Assembly (NCBI RefSeq): GCF_900106055.1
Contig: NZ_LT629792.1
Span: 1,178,001 to 1,242,000, forward strand
Direction of reading: 5' to 3'
Length of the DNA stretch: 64,000 nt
DNA from: Schaalia radingae
GTDB lineage: Bacteria > Actinomycetota > Actinomycetes > Actinomycetales > Actinomycetaceae
The notes beneath the pieces are model-generated. The model was given only the letters and a program-made list of their open reading frames with translations. It was not told the DNA's origin and did not search any database. Shown here piece after piece: positions 3,669 through 10,280 of this stretch (position 1 is its first letter; every line of letters begins with the position of its first letter). The position numbers were made by a program, and so were the translations under genes.

Positions 3669-3674
3669 TACGGT
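3669..3674 (+). promoter_or_regulatory. -10 element (TACGGT), leaderless-type
   Basis: TACGGT ends seven bases before the ATG at 3682. It overlaps an alternative in-frame GTG at 3673, which argues against that GTG as the start. Confidence 0.4.
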
Positions 3675-3681
3675 GGGACGT

Positions 3682-5790
3682 ATGAGCGGGCAACGAATCT
3701 TATGCCAGGAACATCCTTTCGAAGTGATCGCGGAGTATTCCCCTTCAGGCGACCAGCCACACGCGATTCGTGAGCTTGCCGAACGCATCAACGGTGGGGA
3801 ACAACATGTCGTGCTGCTGGGCGCGACCGGCACCGGCAAGACGGCAACAGCCGCCTGGCTCATCGAACAGATTCAGCGTCCCGCCCTGATCATGGAGCCG
3901 AACAAGACGCTGGCCGCTCAGCTCACCGCCGAGTTCCGCGAATTCCTGCCCAGGAACGCGGTCGAATACTTCGTGTCGTACTACGACTACTACCAGCCTG
4001 AAGCATACGTGCCCCAGACAGACACCTATATAGAAAAAGACTCCTCCATTAATGACGAGGTTGAACGCCTGCGACATTCGGCAACCAACTCATTGCTGAC
4101 GCGTCGGGACACGGTTGTGGTCTCATCGGTGTCCTGCATTTACGGCCTGGGCACGCCTGAAGAATACGTGGCACGTATGGTGGATTTGCAGCGAGGAATG
4201 GTCATTGACCGCGACGATTTGCTGCGCGCCTTCGTGGATATGCAGTACGTGCGCAACGACATGTCATTCACCCGCGGCACGTTCCGTGTGCGCGGGGACA
4301 CCATCGAGATCATCCCGGTGTACGAGGAACTCGCCATCCGCATCGAAATGTTCGGTGATGAAATCGACCAGCTCGCCGTATTGCACCCGCTGACAGGTGA
4401 CGTAATACGTGACGTTGACCAGATCTACCTGTTTCCGGCCTCTCACTATGTCGCTGGCGAAGAGCGTATGAAGCGTGCGATCAAGTCGATTGAGGATGAA
4501 CTGGCCGAACGCCTCGAATGGTTCGAATCTCAGGGCAAACTTCTCGAAGCGCAGCGACTACGCATGCGCACAACCTATGATCTGGAAATGCTCAAGGAAG
4601 TCGGCACCTGCTCGGGTGTGGAGAACTATTCACGCCATATTGACGGTCGCGGCCCCGGCACGCCGCCGCACACTCTCCTGGATTATTTCCCGGACGATTT
4701 CCTGCTCATTATCGATGAATCTCACGTCACGGTTCCGCAGATCGGTGCCATGTTCGAGGGTGACATGTCGCGTAAACGCACCCTCGTCGATCATGGTTTC
4801 CGTCTTCCCTCGGCAATGGACAACCGGCCACTGAAGTGGGATGAATTTGGTGAGCGCATCGGGCAGACCATGTATCTGTCGGCCACACCCGGCCCCTACG
4901 AGCTCGAGCGTTGCGACGGAGTTGTTGAACAGATCATTCGCCCAACTGGCCTGGTCGATCCGAAGGTGATTGTGAAGCCTACCTCGGGACAGATTGATGA
5001 CCTGCTCGAAGAAGTCCGGGTGCGTGTGGAACGCAATGAACGCGTCCTCGTCACCACATTGACCAAAAAAATGGCAGAAGACCTCACCACGTATCTGGCC
5101 GAACGCTCCGTTCGCGTCGAATATCTGCACTCGGATGTCGACACGTTGCGCCGCGTGGAACTGTTGCGGGAACTGCGTCAGGGCAAGTTCGACGTCCTTG
5201 TCGGGATCAACCTGCTTCGAGAAGGCCTCGACCTGCCCGAAGTATCGCTCGTGTCCATTCTGGATGCGGACAAGGAAGGGTTCCTGCGCTCAACGCGTTC
5301 CCTCATTCAGACGATTGGCCGCGCAGCCCGTAACGTGTCGGGCGAGGTTCACATGTACGCCGACAACATCACCGATTCGATGCGTGCGGCGATTGAGGAA
5401 ACCGAAAGGCGCAGAGCCAAGCAGATTGCCTATAACGAAAAACATCACATTGATCCGACACCTCTGCGCAAGAAGATCGCTGACGTGACAGACATGCTCG
5501 CACGCGAGGACATTGACACGGAATCACTGCTGGAAGGTGGGTACCGTCAGGAACGCTCCGGCAAGCCCATCGGACATGCCCGAGCCAGCGACGACGTGTT
5601 GCGCCACGCCAGGGATACCCGTGAACGACTGGGACTTCAGGCTGAAGCTGAACTGGCGCAGCTCATTGACGACCTGTCAGCGCAGATGCATGCGGCGGCA
5701 GGCGATCTTCAGTTCGAGCTGGCCGCCCGGCTGCGTGACGAGGTGGCGGATCTCAAACGTGAGCTTCGACAGATGAAGGAAGCAAACTGA
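3682..5790 (+). CDS. uvrB: excinuclease ABC subunit B
   Basis: UvrB, the damage-verifying helicase-like subunit of UvrABC nucleotide excision repair. Visible elements from the chosen start (702 residues): [15 protein letters not shown], Walker A GATGTGKT (47-54), the beta-hairpin [12 protein letters not shown] (about 100-111) that inserts at the lesion, the Walker B region [10 protein letters not shown], helicase motif [11 protein letters not shown], and a C-terminal UVR motif (about 656-691) that contacts UvrC/UvrA. Two in-frame starts are close together, GTG 3673 and ATG 3682; neither has a convincing Shine-Dalgarno sequence. ATG 3682 is preferred because TACGGT lies seven bases before it. 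uvrA and uvrC are also in this window but in separate units. Confidence 0.96.
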
Positions 5791-5819
5791 TTCCGGGGCG
5801 TCTGAACGCGGTAGTATGA

Positions 5820-5932
5820 GATCCACGAGGGGAGTAATCCTTTAACCCGGTATCGTCATCTCGGGACGCTACGTGCGCGCAGCGAACCCGGTACCGAGGC
5901 CTGTCGCAGACAGGCGGACCAGACCTCGGCTG
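5820..5932 (+). promoter_or_regulatory. yybP-ykoY manganese riboswitch
   Basis: This leader matches the yybP-ykoY class, which senses Mn2+. The 5' signature GAGGGGAGTA (5827-5836) and the 3' AGACCTCGG (5921-5929) are both present, and CGAGG (5826-5830) pairs with CCTCG (5924-5928) as P1. Between them lie the CGTCATC segment, a helix around CGCTACG...GCAGCG and a clean hairpin, GCCTGTC-GCA-GACAGGC (about 5899-5915). A TAGTAT -10-like box sits just upstream at about 5812. It ends 27 bases before the GTG of the TerC-family gene, whose products in other bacteria handle manganese. The motif and the neighbour gene agree; a covariance-model score was not computed. Confidence 0.85.
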
Positions 5933-5959
5933 TATCACCCCGAACACGGAAGGTTTTAC

Positions 5960-7063
5960 GTGGACGTTCACGCGCTCGGCTGGGTCGGCCTAGGCCTCGT
6001 CGTCATTGTGCTTATTTCTATCGACATCATCGGTCATGTCCGTACACCGCACGCCCCCACCATGAAAGAGGCGGCATTGTGGACTGTGGGCTACGTTTCT
6101 CTCGCGATGCTATTCGGAATCGGGATCTGGGCGATTTATGGCGGCCAGTATGCCGGAGAGTTCTACGGCGGCTGGATCACCGAATGGTCCCTGTCGCTCG
6201 ACAACTTGTTCGTCTTTGTCATCATTATGAATTCGTTTAGAGTGCCGCGAGAATATCAGCAAAAAGCGCTGCTCAGCGGCATCATCATTGCGCTCGTCAT
6301 GCGCCTGATCTTCATCCTGATCGGTGCCGCACTGATTGAGCGCTTCTCCTGGGTCTTCTTTATCTTCGGTGCATGGCTGCTATGGACGGCATACTCTCAG
6401 GCACGCCAGGGGACCGGCGGAGACGAGGAAGAATCCGAACAGGGTGAAAACGGGTTCATCCGCCTCGTGCGCCGCATCGTTCCCGTCACCGACGGGTATT
6501 ACTCGGACCGGTTCCTCTATCGCCATGGCGGAAGGACTGCTGTGACACCGCTGCTGCTGGTGGTCCTCGCTCTGGGGTCAGCCGACCTCATGTTTGCGTT
6601 TGACTCCATTCCGGCAATCTTCGGCCTCACGAAAGAGCCGTACCTGGTCTTCGCGTGCAACGCCTTCGCCCTGCTGGGCCTGCGTCAGCTCTACTTCCTG
6701 ATCGACGGACTGCTTGATCGTCTCGTGTACCTTCACTACGGCCTGGCCGTCATTCTTGGCTTCATCGGCGTGAAGCTCATTTTGCACGCCCTGCATGAGA
6801 ACACGTTGCCGTTCATTAACGGTGGACAGGGCTTCGAAAGCGTCCCCGAGGTGGGCACACCGCTCTCACTGGCCGTCATCGCCGGAACGCTGATCATCAC
6901 GGTGATCGCCTCGATCCTCAAGTCACGCCACTCAAACGTCCTGCGGGCACCTCAGCCGATTAATCGCAGTGCCAAGGCCGAGCAGGATGCGGCACGCTCC
7001 TCGGTGCGTGAGGTCGCTGACTCCGACGAGCAGCATACTGAGCCGCGTCCGTCAGTGGACTGA
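5960..7063 (+). CDS. TerC-family membrane protein (metal exporter type)
   Basis: Multi-helix membrane protein of the TerC/Alx family, 367 residues. The family signatures with membrane-embedded acidic residues are present: EWSLSLDNLFVFV and SADLMFAFDSIPAIFGLT. A charged cytoplasmic loop (GDEEESEQGENG) and a polar C-terminal tail follow the family plan. TerC proteins are linked to Mn2+ export and to metalation of secreted enzymes in Bacillus; here the preceding yybP-ykoY riboswitch supports a manganese role. The start is GTG 5960 with GGAAGG seven bases upstream; the longer frame from 5873 begins inside the riboswitch and is rejected. Its stop shares one base with the start of the downstream P-type ATPase gene. 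Confidence 0.9.
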   Translation: MDVHALGWVGLGLVVIVLISIDIIGHVRTPHAPTMKEAALWTVGYVSLAMLFGIGIWAIYGGQYAGEFYGGWITEWSLSLDNLFVFVIIMNSFRVPREYQQKALLSGIIIALVMRLIFILIGAALIERFSWVFFIFGAWLLWTAYSQARQGTGGDEEESEQGENGFIRLVRRIVPVTDGYYSDRFLYRHGGRTAVTPLLLVVLALGSADLMFAFDSIPAIFGLTKEPYLVFACNAFALLGLRQLYFLIDGLLDRLVYLHYGLAVILGFIGVKLILHALHENTLPFINGGQGFESVPEVGTPLSLAVIAGTLIITVIASILKSRHSNVLRAPQPINRSAKAEQDAARSSVREVADSDEQHTEPRPSVD

Positions 7064-9462
7064 TGCCAGCACCCGGGCCATCCGGCCTCACGGCCGCGCA
7101 AGTGGAAGAACGCACCCGTCAGGGTGAGGTCAACCATCACCATACGAAGACGTCCCGCTCGCTCGGATCAATAGCGCGAGCGAATGTTTTCACCCTGTTC
7201 AACACGATCCTTACCACCGCAATTGTTGTGGTACTGATTGTGGGGGACTGGCGGGACGCAGTGTTCGGCGGCGTGATGGTACTCAACGCCATCATCGGTA
7301 TCGCGGCGGAATACCGCGCGAAGAAAACGCTCGATTCCCTGGCGATTGTCGACGCGCCGCATTCGCTGGTGTGGCGGGATGGTGAAGAGCGCGAGGTCCT
7401 GTCGGAAGACGTGGTACGCGGCGACATCATCGAGCTGCGCCTGGGGGACCAGGTTCCCGTCGATGGAATCGTGCAGACTTCCCACAGCCTCGACATTGAC
7501 GAATCTTTGTTGACGGGCGAATCCGTACCGATCAGAAAAAAGCAGGGTGACCGCGTCCTGGCCGGCACCGCTGTCGTCTCAGGTGACGGCCTTATCGAAG
7601 CCACTGTTGTCGGCAACGCCGTTTACGCCCACACACTCACTGAACAGGTCCGCCGCTTCACGCGCACCACTTCCGAGATTCAGCAGGGCATTAACCGTGT
7701 CCTGCGGGTCATTTCGTGGCTGATTGTGCCCGTCACCGCGCTGATCGTATGGTCGCAGATCCGCCTCGATCCACTCAGCGGTGGATGGCGGCACGCACTC
7801 GTCCTGGCGGTCGCGGCAGTTGTCGGCATGATCCCGCAGGGCCTGGTTCTGCTGACCTCCATGAACTTCGCCCTCGGCGCGGCAACACTGGCACGGCGCA
7901 AAGTCCTCGTCAATGAGCTTCCCGCGGTGGAAGTCCTCGCGCGTGTGGATGCCCTCTGCGTTGACAAAACGGGAACGCTGACTACCGGCGGAGTGAGCGT
8001 CGATTCCATGATTCCCCTAGGCGCGGGTGACAGCGGTGACCGAATTGACGAGGGTGCCGCCCGCGCACTGTTGACACTCAATGCTTCCACACACAACGCA
8101 ACTGCGGAAGCGATCGTTGCTCATCTGAAGGCGCAGGCACTCGAGGTAGAGCCAGCTGGCCTGTCTGCTAACTGGAGCGTCCCATTCAATTCGACACGCA
8201 AATGGTCGGGATTCAGTGATGGAGAGCAGGCCTGGGTGCTGGGCGCTCCGGAAATGACGGTGACTGACGCGAACGTGCTGGATCACGTCACGCGCGTTGC
8301 CGACCAGGGACTTCGCGTTGTGGTGCTCAGCTGTGCGCCGGCAGCTCCCTCATCAATGGGGGAGGAACTGCCGCAGGGACTTCAGCCGAACACGCTGATC
8401 GTCCTGCGCGAACAGATCCGCCCTGACGCTGCTGACACAATGGAGTATTTCCGCCGGCAGGGCGTGCGGGTACGTGTGATATCAGGTGACAATCCCGCGA
8501 CTGTGCAGGCTATTGCGAACGTGGCCTCATTGCGTGAGGACCAAGCGACGATTCGCGGGATGGATGCGCGCACCCTGCCTGAGGACATGGACAGCGACGC
8601 GTTCGTGCAGGCCGTGATGGATCATGATGTGTTCGGACGTGTCACTCCGGAGCAAAAACGCGCAATGGTGCGGGCATTACAGTCTCGCGGGCATACTGTC
8701 GCGATGACGGGTGACGGCGTCAATGACGCACTTGCCCTGAAAGATGCTGACCTGGGGATCGCGATGGGCAGCGGTGCCCGCGCTACGAAAGCGGTGGCGC
8801 AGATCGTGCTGGTCGATGGAGCGTTTGCAGCTCTGCCAGGGGTCGTCGCTGAAGGGCGGCGCATCATGGCGAATATGGAACGTGTCTCCGCGCTCTTCCT
8901 GGCCAAGACGGTCTACGCCAGCCTCATTGCCGTCATCTGTGCCCTTGCCGCCTGGCACTACCCGTTCCTGCCCCGTCACTTCACTTACATTGATGCGCTG
9001 ACCATCGGAATCCCGGCATTCTTCATCGCGCTGGGACCGAACAGGCGACGATACGTCAGCGGATATTTGAAGCGCGTGCTCGGCCTGGCCGTTCCATCAG
9101 GGTGCGTGTTGGCTGCAGCTGCGTTGACTGCGTACTGGATGGTGGGCGTGGGAAAAGTGGAGGGCCAAACCGCTGCCGCGTTGTCGTTGATGTGTGGTGC
9201 ACTGTGGCTCCTGTCCATTACCGCACGCCCGGTCAATTCGTGGCGCGCCGGACTGATTGCACTCATGCTGACCTGCGCTGTCGCGGGAGTATTCATCCCA
9301 TTCGTCCGCAATTTCTTTGCGCTGGAGTGGCCGGCAGCGCACGACGGATGGGTGATCCTCGCGTGCGGCCTCACCGCCTGTATCCTCATCGAAGCGGCGC
9401 ATCGCGCATACTCATTGCGCCACCAGCGAAAGGCTGAAACGGACGGTGCGCCACTAGACTGA
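7063..9462 (+). CDS. cation-transporting P-type ATPase (CtpE-like)
   Basis: Integral membrane cation pump, 799 residues. All P-type hallmarks are visible: actuator TGES (151-154), phosphorylation site DKTGT (301-305, phospho-Asp301) and the hinge TGDGVND (549-555). The ion-site helix M4 reads MIPQGL (256-261), where Ca2+ and many other P2 pumps have PEGL. The overall arrangement resembles mycobacterial CtpE-type proteins: short N-terminus, no heavy-metal-binding domain, extra helices at the C-terminus. Substrate is inferred, not shown: co-transcription with TerC behind a Mn2+ riboswitch, with a one-base TGATG overlap, favours Mn2+ (or Ca2+) export. Confidence 0.88.
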   Translation: MPAPGPSGLTAAQVEERTRQGEVNHHHTKTSRSLGSIARANVFTLFNTILTTAIVVVLIVGDWRDAVFGGVMVLNAIIGIAAEYRAKKTLDSLAIVDAPHSLVWRDGEEREVLSEDVVRGDIIELRLGDQVPVDGIVQTSHSLDIDESLLTGESVPIRKKQGDRVLAGTAVVSGDGLIEATVVGNAVYAHTLTEQVRRFTRTTSEIQQGINRVLRVISWLIVPVTALIVWSQIRLDPLSGGWRHALVLAVAAVVGMIPQGLVLLTSMNFALGAATLARRKVLVNELPAVEVLARVDALCVDKTGTLTTGGVSVDSMIPLGAGDSGDRIDEGAARALLTLNASTHNATAEAIVAHLKAQALEVEPAGLSANWSVPFNSTRKWSGFSDGEQAWVLGAPEMTVTDANVLDHVTRVADQGLRVVVLSCAPAAPSSMGEELPQGLQPNTLIVLREQIRPDAADTMEYFRRQGVRVRVISGDNPATVQAIANVASLREDQATIRGMDARTLPEDMDSDAFVQAVMDHDVFGRVTPEQKRAMVRALQSRGHTVAMTGDGVNDALALKDADLGIAMGSGARATKAVAQIVLVDGAFAALPGVVAEGRRIMANMERVSALFLAKTVYASLIAVICALAAWHYPFLPRHFTYIDALTIGIPAFFIALGPNRRRYVSGYLKRVLGLAVPSGCVLAAAALTAYWMVGVGKVEGQTAAALSLMCGALWLLSITARPVNSWRAGLIALMLTCAVAGVFIPFVRNFFALEWPAAHDGWVILACGLTACILIEAAHRAYSLRHQRKAETDGAPLD
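9455..9460 (+). promoter_or_regulatory. -10 element (TAGACT) for the alpha/beta hydrolase
   Basis: TAGACT overlaps the end of the P-type ATPase gene and lies 34 bases before the ATG at 9495, leaving room for the visible AAGGAG. The same hexamer precedes other genes in this window. Confidence 0.35.
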
Positions 9463-9494
9463 CAGTGCGGAGATACCACGTGAAGGAGTTGAAG

Positions 9495-10280
9495 ATGACT
9501 GCATGGAAGCTGCCGCTGACGATCCTGGGAAACGAGGATGCTCCGGCGTTGGTGCTGGGACATTCACTGGGATCAAGCCACGACATGTGGGAGAGCGTCA
9601 TCCCTTTGATTCGCGACGATTTTGATATTGTCCTCTACGACCTGCCCGGACACGGGGGAACACCGATTGCTCCGGTCGGCCGCGAACTGAAGATGACCGA
9701 CGTTGTGGAAGCACTGCTTGGCGCCTTGGATGATCACGGCGTCGATACGTTTCATTGCGCCGGACTGTCACTGGGTGGCATGGTCGCCATGGCTACTGCA
9801 ATCACACATCCTCAGCGGGTGCGCAGCCTCACCGTCATGAGTGCCGGGCCGATCAATGGTCAGCCTGATCAGTGGTACGACAAAGCTGGGGCTGTGCGTC
9901 GCGACGGCACAGCAAGCCTGGTGGACGCAACGTTCGAGCGCTGGTTCATGCCTGAATTTGCTTCGGGGGAGGGTGCTGACCGCGTTGAGGCGATTCGCAG
10001 GATCTTCGAAAACTGTGACGACGAGGGATACGCGCAGTGCTGCGAGGTCCTCGCGAGTACGGACATGCGCGGCGACGTTGCGAGCATCCACACTCCAACC
10101 CTCCTGATCAGCGCTGAAGAGGACGGTTCACTGAACTGGGCGGGCGCTGACGAACTGGCCCGCACCATCCGCAGTGGAGGGGCGACTGTGCAGGTGGCAC
10201 GCATCCCTCAGGCGCGGCATATGAGCGCCGTTGAGAAGCCGGAGCTGGTGGCTCGGGCTCTCAAAGGGCTGGTCGACTAG
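9495..10280 (+). CDS. alpha/beta hydrolase
   Basis: Cytoplasmic alpha/beta-hydrolase-fold enzyme of 261 residues, closest in plan to 3-oxoadipate enol-lactonases, though the true substrate is unknown. The oxyanion region LGHSLGSS (21-28) and the catalytic triad are visible: nucleophile Ser92 in GLSLGG, acid Asp210 in SAEEDGSLNW, and His242 in QARHMSAVEKPE. The ATG at 9495 has AAGGAG six bases upstream and is preferred over an in-frame GTG at 9465. No beta-ketoadipate pathway genes are nearby, so a lactonase function in aromatic degradation is not supported by context. Confidence 0.82.
   Translation: MTAWKLPLTILGNEDAPALVLGHSLGSSHDMWESVIPLIRDDFDIVLYDLPGHGGTPIAPVGRELKMTDVVEALLGALDDHGVDTFHCAGLSLGGMVAMATAITHPQRVRSLTVMSAGPINGQPDQWYDKAGAVRRDGTASLVDATFERWFMPEFASGEGADRVEAIRRIFENCDDEGYAQCCEVLASTDMRGDVASIHTPTLLISAEEDGSLNWAGADELARTIRSGGATVQVARIPQARHMSAVEKPELVARALKGLVD

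What the first reader, a model, noticed from the sequence alone, without database searches (positions are those of the whole stretch)
5820..9462. Manganese riboswitch controlling a TerC protein and a P-type ATPase in one operon
The leader carries the conserved ends and P1 pairing of yybP-ykoY (GGGGAGTA ... AGACCTC). Its downstream genes are TerC-family and a P-type ATPase joined by a one-base TGATG overlap. TerC and ATPases have each been linked to Mn2+ export in Firmicutes; the two behind one riboswitch suggest a two-part manganese efflux or exoenzyme-metalation system in an actinobacterium. The riboswitch also fixes the TerC start at GTG 5960; a start at 5873 would lie inside the aptamer.
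Basis: partly seen in the sequence, partly recalled or inferred. Interest (0 to 1): 0.8.

Follow-up and report, generated by a model that had tools for sequence, protein, structure and literature searches.

The report
Manganese riboswitch before TerC and pump
In this actinobacterium an RNA switch that most likely senses manganese sits in front of a known kind of manganese exporter (TerC) and a little-studied ion pump; in the genomes read here, pumps with the same two unusual residues in their ion-binding helix nearly always sit beside TerC, which makes this pump a testable candidate for a new manganese pump.

Summary
Rfam's RF00080 gives no hit, but that negative says little: the same model misses E. 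coli alx and scores mntP below its cut-off. A covariance model from 26 relatives, without the window, finds the leader at 5824-5930 (55.7 bits, E 9e-12) and E. coli alx (45.8 bits); the helices covary. It is a yybP-ykoY aptamer, almost surely Mn2+-sensing, probably controlling translation.

Of 68 pump loci read in its family, 29 have CtpE's TM4 residues (PEGL...A), none beside TerC; 39 have PQGL...N, 36 beside TerC, 2 more at 3.7 kb. Best reading: TerC and a P6-type pump form a Mn2+ efflux operon, the pump having an ion site unlike CtpE's. Against it: transport is untested; one tree branch separates the two types, so the association is about one event and its polarity is open; in 10 of 39 loci the pump lies upstream of the riboswitch; CtpE itself imports Ca2+.

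The parts
5824..5930 (+). yybP-ykoY (Mn2+) riboswitch aptamer, three-way-junction form (no P2 hairpin)
   Evidence: R2 (window not in training) 55.7 bits E 9e-12; R1 66.9 bits, window in training; the one R1 match in the genome at E<=1e-3
5826..5830 (+). 5' strand of switch helix P1.1 (CGAGG), pairs with 5924-5928
   Evidence: sequence; pairs counted; present in the unconstrained fold of 5824-5965
5829..5836 (+). L1 motif GGGGAGTA
   Evidence: sequence; in A1 invariant by construction, as leaders were picked by it
5838..5840 (+). TCC of the inner P1 helix, pairs with GGA 5916-5918
   Evidence: helix 2
5848..5852 (+). P3 5' strand CGGTA, pairs with TACCG 5892-5896
   Evidence: helix 3: 7 of 7 pairs with a two-sided change, 68.7% of cells paired
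5858..5858 (+). candidate Mn2+ discriminator adenosine (last A of TCGTCA; equivalent of Llac A41 / Xory A48)
   Evidence: invariant in 29 of 29 rows, not a selection criterion; equivalence inferred from the UCA/ACA context in PMC6754395 (passages)
5899..5915 (+). P4 hairpin GCCTGT...ACAGGC
   Evidence: sequence; fold
5921..5926 (+). AGACCT at the P1.1 3' side, which could instead pair with AGGTTT 5951-5956 over the ribosome-binding site
   Evidence: weak in the window (27 of 200 shuffles as good)
5948..5953 (+). likely ribosome-binding site GGAAGG of terC
   Evidence: sequence
5960..7063 (+). TerC protein, Alx subfamily, 367 aa, GTG start
   Evidence: PF03741 4e-51; TIGR03718 370.5 bits, cut-off 246.4
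7063..9462 (+). P-type ATPase of the CtpE/P6 clade, PQGL...N type, 799 aa
7837..7839 (+). codon of Gln259 in TM4 PQGL (Glu in CtpE)
7864..7866 (+). codon of Asn268 in TM4 (Ala in CtpE)
9004..9006 (+). codon of Ile648 in TM6 TIGIP, where Ca2+ efflux pumps have Asp
   Evidence: feature described in PMC10654040 (passages)

Best explanation
A Mn2+-responsive yybP-ykoY riboswitch turns on a two-gene Mn2+ efflux operon. When cytosolic Mn2+ is high, the L1 and L3 loops dock, P1.1 is stabilised and holds AGACCTC, the ribosome-binding site is freed and TerC is made; the pump is made with it through the one-base stop/start overlap. TerC (Alx-type) and the ATPase then lower cytosolic Mn2+. The ATPase is of a type within the P6/CtpE clade whose TM4 differs from CtpE's at two places (Gln259 for Glu, Asn268 for Ala), which I read as an ion site suited to Mn2+ rather than to CtpE's Ca2+. 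Shown here: aptamer family, gene order, clade, the residue pair, linkage to TerC. Inferred: Mn2+ as ligand, direction of the switch, Mn2+ as pump substrate, outward direction, and which TM4 state is older.
For: Aptamer; invariant discriminator A; R1 and R2 also find E. coli alx, not in training. Context: TerC directly follows 28 of the 30 best class-wide R1 hits whose loci were fetched; the model was itself built from terC leaders, so this is not fully independent. Pump: own-genome best hit of a ctpE-locus protein, 45%, E 1e-178, next hit E 1e-18; P6 clade apart from three E. coli pumps with SH-aLRT 99. Gln259/Asn268 in 39 of 39 of the one type and 0 of 61 others (for L243 my pattern failed and I read E/A from the printed sequence). 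In the same first pass TerC is beside 36 of 39 Q/N loci and 0 of 29 E/A loci of the same family. The genome has no match to MntP or GDT1/UPF0016 and one CDF that looks Zn-type by a recalled motif. No terminator-like site in 5700-6000 and 29 nt from aptamer to start, so translational control is likelier.
Against: No transport or ligand data. CtpE imports Ca2+, and Mn2+ did not compete (PMC5615198, passages). In 10 of 39 Q/N loci the pump lies upstream of the riboswitch, and 3 Gleimia-type loci keep TerC-pump without a riboswitch. One branch separates Q/N from the rest, so the link with TerC is about one event plus inheritance; with E. coli pumps as outgroup (branches at the length limit) the root falls inside the Q/N set, so E-to-Q is not shown to be the direction of change. 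The anti-RBS pairing is weak in the window. Gln at the place of SERCA Glu309 (recalled) could equally just weaken the site.
Confidence: 0.5

Rival explanations
1. The pump still handles Ca2+ (uptake like CtpE, or efflux) and is co-induced by Mn2+ to rebalance Ca2+ while TerC exports Mn2+.
For: CtpE is a Ca2+ importer; Ca2+ rescues a Mn2+-sensitive pneumococcal mutant (PMC11434433, title and passages); TM6 keeps the Ile of P6 pumps.
Against: Gln259/Asn268 go with TerC linkage; the 29 E/A loci of the same family have CtpE's residues and none sits by TerC in the flanks read.
Confidence: 0.2
2. The pair supplies exported enzymes with Mn2+ (exoenzyme metalation as for MeeF/MeeY) rather than detoxifying the cell.
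For: B. subtilis TerC proteins MeeF and MeeY metalate exoenzymes, and meeY is under a Mn2+ riboswitch (PMC10550928, passages).
Against: This TerC is of the Alx subfamily (TIGR03718 370.5 bits; YkoY model 73.1 bits, below its cut-off of 138.5), and Alx is described as mediating Mn2+ efflux (PMC13274385, passages). No target enzyme was sought here.
Confidence: 0.15
3. The pump is a bystander: it sits next to terC by ancestral gene order (near uvrB) without shared function.
For: A uvrB match lies in 56 of 80 named loci; the pump is in front of or behind the riboswitch in different genera.
Against: Linkage survives reordering (26 TerC-pump, 10 pump-riboswitch-TerC, 2 at 3.7 kb, 1 unlinked) and follows the TM4 residue pair.
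Confidence: 0.15

Closest known systems
E. coli alx riboswitch and Alx
   Same: Found by models R1 and R2 built from actinobacterial leaders; TerC-family product 38% identical.
   Different: The gene after alx in the 5 kb seen is sstT, not a pump.
S. pneumoniae mgtA (formerly caxP) riboswitch and ATPase
   Same: A yybP-ykoY aptamer controlling a P-type ATPase; the aptamer is described as having a three-way junction (PMC9495176, passages).
   Different: No TerC is mentioned in the passages seen. That MgtA is a P2A-type pump is recalled (the paper calls it P1B). I had no MgtA sequence to compare. The window pump's best PDB sequence match is a Listeria Ca2+-ATPase, in two separate stretches.
CtpE of M. 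smegmatis (P6 ATPase)
   Same: Same clade as pumps of ctpE-like loci; similar length (791 aa per PMC5615198; 796 aa in L181); TM6 Ile.
   Different: PQGL...N instead of PEGL...A in TM4; TerC and a Mn2+ riboswitch beside it. The ctpE-like locus L181 has an enoyl-CoA hydratase, a metallo-beta-lactamase-fold and a beta-lactamase-like protein instead and no R1 match.
C. glutamicum yybP-ykoY-terC (cg2157)
   Same: Riboswitch before terC in an actinobacterium, already annotated from an older Rfam (PMC3890552, passages).
   Different: No pump is named with it in the passage seen.

Membership tests
yybP-ykoY (Mn2+) riboswitch | Conserved L1 GGGGAGUA and closing AGACC with P1 pairing | tested here: met
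yybP-ykoY (Mn2+) riboswitch | P3/L3 core with invariant discriminator adenosine | tested here: met
   A5858; invariant in 29 of 29 rows
yybP-ykoY (Mn2+) riboswitch | Homology to an experimentally shown member by covariance model | tested here: met
   R1 49.5 and R2 45.8 bits on E. coli alx, not in training; mntP found by neither
yybP-ykoY (Mn2+) riboswitch | RF00080 gathering score | tested here: not met
   the test is insensitive (alx missed, mntP below cut-off). It is a search threshold, not a feature of the RNA, so I still file the leader here
yybP-ykoY (Mn2+) riboswitch | P2 helix / four-way junction | tested here: not met
   only 7 nt (5841-5847) between inner P1 and P3 strands; not obligatory, since mgtA is described as three-way
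yybP-ykoY (Mn2+) riboswitch | Mn2+-dependent folding and gene control | not testable with these tools
   needs in-line probing or a reporter
TerC family, Alx subfamily | PF03741 and TIGR03718 above cut-off | tested here: met
P6 (CtpE) P-type ATPases | Clade with CtpE | tested here: met
P6 (CtpE) P-type ATPases | TM6 Asp replaced by Ile | tested here: met
   TIGIP
P6 (CtpE) P-type ATPases | PEGL in TM4 | tested here: not met
   PQGL: described as a divergent type within the clade, not filed as a CtpE
P6 (CtpE) P-type ATPases | Ca2+ uptake | not testable with these tools
   -

The most novel reading that the evidence does not exclude
A type of P6 ATPase is a Mn2+ pump: Gln259/Asn268 in TM4 make an ion site unlike CtpE's, and the type is kept together with TerC, in most cases behind a Mn2+ riboswitch, the first genetic link of a P6 pump to manganese that I could find.
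Probability: 0.4. Interest if true: 0.7.

Novelty: new variant of a known kind. Interest (0 to 1): 0.55.

Why it matters
P6 ATPases occur in many phyla, and a review asks why a pump with PEGL and a TM6 Ile should import Ca2+ (PMC10654040, passages). Two pump types inside one bacterial family, differing at two TM4 sites and in linkage to a Mn2+ operon, give matched pairs for testing what sets substrate and direction. It also shows that the held Rfam model misses the Mn2+ riboswitch in much of the class: 0 of 296 genomes over cut-off and 7 of 296 at E<=1e-3, against 186 of 296 with R1 (both run with the tool's stricter filters, so both are lower bounds).

Tried and rejected
Rfam as the deciding test: rejected after E. 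coli alx and mntP also failed it. Folding energy of the lone leader: not informative (z -0.68). Novelty of the missing P2 helix: dropped, since the pneumococcal mgtA aptamer is described as three-way. 'New actinobacterial riboswitch-TerC link': dropped, already annotated in C. glutamicum. Promoter and terminator scan of 5700-6000: none found; a TAGTAT at 5811-5816 was seen by eye only. Alpha/beta hydrolase after the pump as a third member: a match in 11 of 80 named loci, but many loci end 0.5-1.5 kb after the pump, so this undercounts. PDB sequence search for TerC: no match. AlphaFold model of the pump (mean pLDDT 78.2): TM4 helix broken at 257-258 just before Gln259; Foldseek ranks Listeria Ca2+-ATPase, SPCA1 and SERCA among the first, about 20% identity; neither identifies the ion.

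Dropped rows: A1 used 29 of 37 non-redundant leaders; A4 26 of 37; A3 (15 leaders) aligned badly and was not used. The anti-RBS script used 44 of 67 leaders (66 loci with an R1 match plus the window). The first pump tree used 27 TerC-linked loci plus the window and left out near-copies. Of 82 family genomes with a pump match, one locus each was read in 68; 14 genomes were not read. Class pumps outside the family: 29 loci, the best of 57 other genomes with a match. The flank searched for TerC was 1.5 kb in L152-L180 and L192-L220 and 1.9-4.0 kb in L221-L258 (all 29 E/A loci are in the latter); the longer look for TerC was made for three Q/N loci only.
Full report
1. What is there. The window lies in a genome of 2.43 Mb in one contig; its closest named relatives are mostly Actinomyces, Schaalia and other Actinomycetaceae. 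Upstream is uvrB by eye (3673-5790), then a leader, TerC (5960-7063) and a P-type ATPase (7063-9462), with a one-base overlap.

2. The leader is a yybP-ykoY aptamer. RF00080 gives nothing, but the held model fails on E. coli alx and scores mntP under its cut-off. I therefore used relatives. GGGGAGTA stands within 260 nt upstream of TerC in 62 of 80 named loci. 29 leaders (A1, window included) support P1.1, an inner P1 helix, P3 in two parts and P4: 21 of 24 pairs change on both sides in at least one row, covariation 0.452 against 0.102-0.135 when partners are slid. Related rows inflate shuffle tests, so the slid controls matter more; the leaders were picked by GGGGAGTA and partly by P1 pairing. 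Model R1 matches 66 of 80 named loci, one place in the genome, E. coli alx at 49.5 bits, and all 7 weak RF00080 places of the class. It does not find mntP. Model R2, made without the window, finds the window at 55.7 bits and alx at 45.8. The adenosine that gives Mn2+ its N7 contact in solved structures (A41/A48; PMC6754395, passages) corresponds to A5858, invariant in the alignment.

3. Gene context from an RNA-anchored scan. R1 run on 296 genomes of the class matches 186. Of the 30 best places, which were fetched, 28 have TerC directly downstream; the model came from terC leaders, which favours such places. The other two, in Mycobacterium-type genomes, run into a very long P-type ATPase. RF00080, also on 296 class genomes, matched 7, none over its cut-off.

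4. How the switch may work. The aptamer ends 29 nt before GTG 5960, with no terminator-like site. In many relatives the P1.1 3' strand can pair instead with the ribosome-binding site, for example CCTCCGGTAC with GTACCGGAGG; 24 of 44 leaders tested do so better than 95% of shuffles (many are close kin). In the window the pairing is AGACCT/AGGTTT and 27 of 200 shuffles do as well, so it is only suggestive. Mn2+ binding is reported to stabilise P1.1 (PMC6754395 and PMC11087558, passages), which would free the site: an ON switch for translation. This is inferred.

5. TerC. Alx subfamily, 370.5 bits; 38% identical to E. coli Alx. Alx and other TerC proteins are described as Mn2+ exporters, and MeeF/MeeY as exoenzyme metalation factors (PMC13274385 and PMC10550928, passages).

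6. The pump. Pfam and NCBIfam see only a general P-type ATPase. Two features point to P6: TM6 TIGIP (Ile where Ca2+ efflux pumps have Asp; PMC10654040, passages) and the clade. Locus L181, from an unnamed Mycobacterium-type genome, has an enoyl-CoA hydratase, a metallo-beta-lactamase-fold protein, a beta-lactamase-like protein and then a pump, the order described for the ctpE operon (PMC5615198, passages). Its pump finds the window pump as best match in the window's genome (45%, E 1e-178; next E 1e-18). In a tree with three E. coli pumps the clade has SH-aLRT 99; no P2A pump was included and the outgroup branches are at the length limit.

7. The two types. Comparing 28 TerC-linked pumps with 30 others, 17 sites passed my filter; of these only position 268 separates every row (Asn 28 of 28, Ala 30 of 30), and 259 is Gln in 28 of 28 against Glu in 28 and Leu in 2 of 30. 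Both lie in TM4. To remove the TerC bias I searched the family with the pump itself: 82 of 121 genomes match, and 68 loci were read. 39 carry Q/N and 29 E/A (28 by script, L243 by eye). TerC is beside 36 of the 39: 26 directly upstream (L197 with overlapping alignments) and 10 after the riboswitch downstream of the pump. Two more have TerC 3.7 kb upstream on the same strand, and one (L213/L261) has none within 8.9 kb upstream. No E/A locus has TerC within its 1.9-4.0 kb flanks. R1 occurs in 25 of these 67 loci besides the window's, all Q/N. Of 29 class loci outside the family, 27 are E/A and 2 L/A, none with TerC or R1 within 1.5 kb. A branch with support 99 separates all Q/N from all others, so the association counts as about one event, kept through rearrangement. 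With the distant E. coli outgroup the root falls inside the Q/N set, so which state is older is open.

8. What speaks against an operon-wide Mn2+ story. In the 10 loci with pump-riboswitch-TerC order, and in 5 of 80 named loci, the pump is not behind the riboswitch. Three Gleimia-type loci keep both genes without a riboswitch match. CtpE is reported as Ca2+-specific.

9. Other exporters. Of three families searched, the genome has no MntP, no GDT1/UPF0016 and one CDF with a His-containing TM2 motif that I recall as Zn-type.

10. Print. The listings of searches of the held open-access library (titles and abstract starts; some lists capped) showed no paper on a CtpE/P6 pump with a Mn2+ riboswitch or TerC. 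Subscription papers, including the two 2015 papers on this riboswitch, were not seen. Riboswitch-TerC and riboswitch-ATPase pairs are each known.

11. Verdict. Observation confirmed; interpretation partly supported. Riboswitch identity about 0.97; Mn2+ export by both genes about 0.5. New variant of a known kind.

Noticed in passing
L262 715-814 (+) and L263 6924-7021 (-): R1 riboswitch (71 and 70 bits) directly before a roughly 1,500-aa P-type ATPase in two Mycobacterium-type genomes; CtpH/CtpI-like by recall, pumps that PMC10654040 calls not yet characterised.
   Followed up: partly
class-wide: The held RF00080 model finds 7 of 296 genomes (0 over cut-off) where R1 finds 186 of 296, and it misses E. 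coli alx.
   Followed up: yes
L020, L021, L023-L027, L029, L031, L032, L034, L035, L037: Tandem terC-terC behind one riboswitch, then the pump, in 13 of 80 named loci; L022 has the riboswitch and two terC but no pump in its flank.
   Followed up: partly
L004, L005, L010: TerC copies without riboswitch or pump match, from assemblies that hold a second TerC locus with both (L002, L003, L007); L010 ends right after TerC.
   Followed up: no
L011, L018, L072: Gleimia-type loci keep terC-pump behind uvrB but show no riboswitch match.
   Followed up: no
L024, L034, L040: Records titled Sanguibacter, Xylanimonas and Tissierella carry Actinomycetaceae-type loci (tree for L024 and L040); probably mislabelled. 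The Tissierella contig has the same length as a contig of G383, which the tool places in the window's family.
   Followed up: partly
L156, L172: P6-type pumps of the same order with PLGL in TM4, next to the Q/N set in the midpoint-rooted tree.
   Followed up: no
9465-10280: 3-oxoadipate enol-lactonase-like alpha/beta hydrolase two bases after the pump; a match in 11 of 80 named loci, an undercount.
   Followed up: partly
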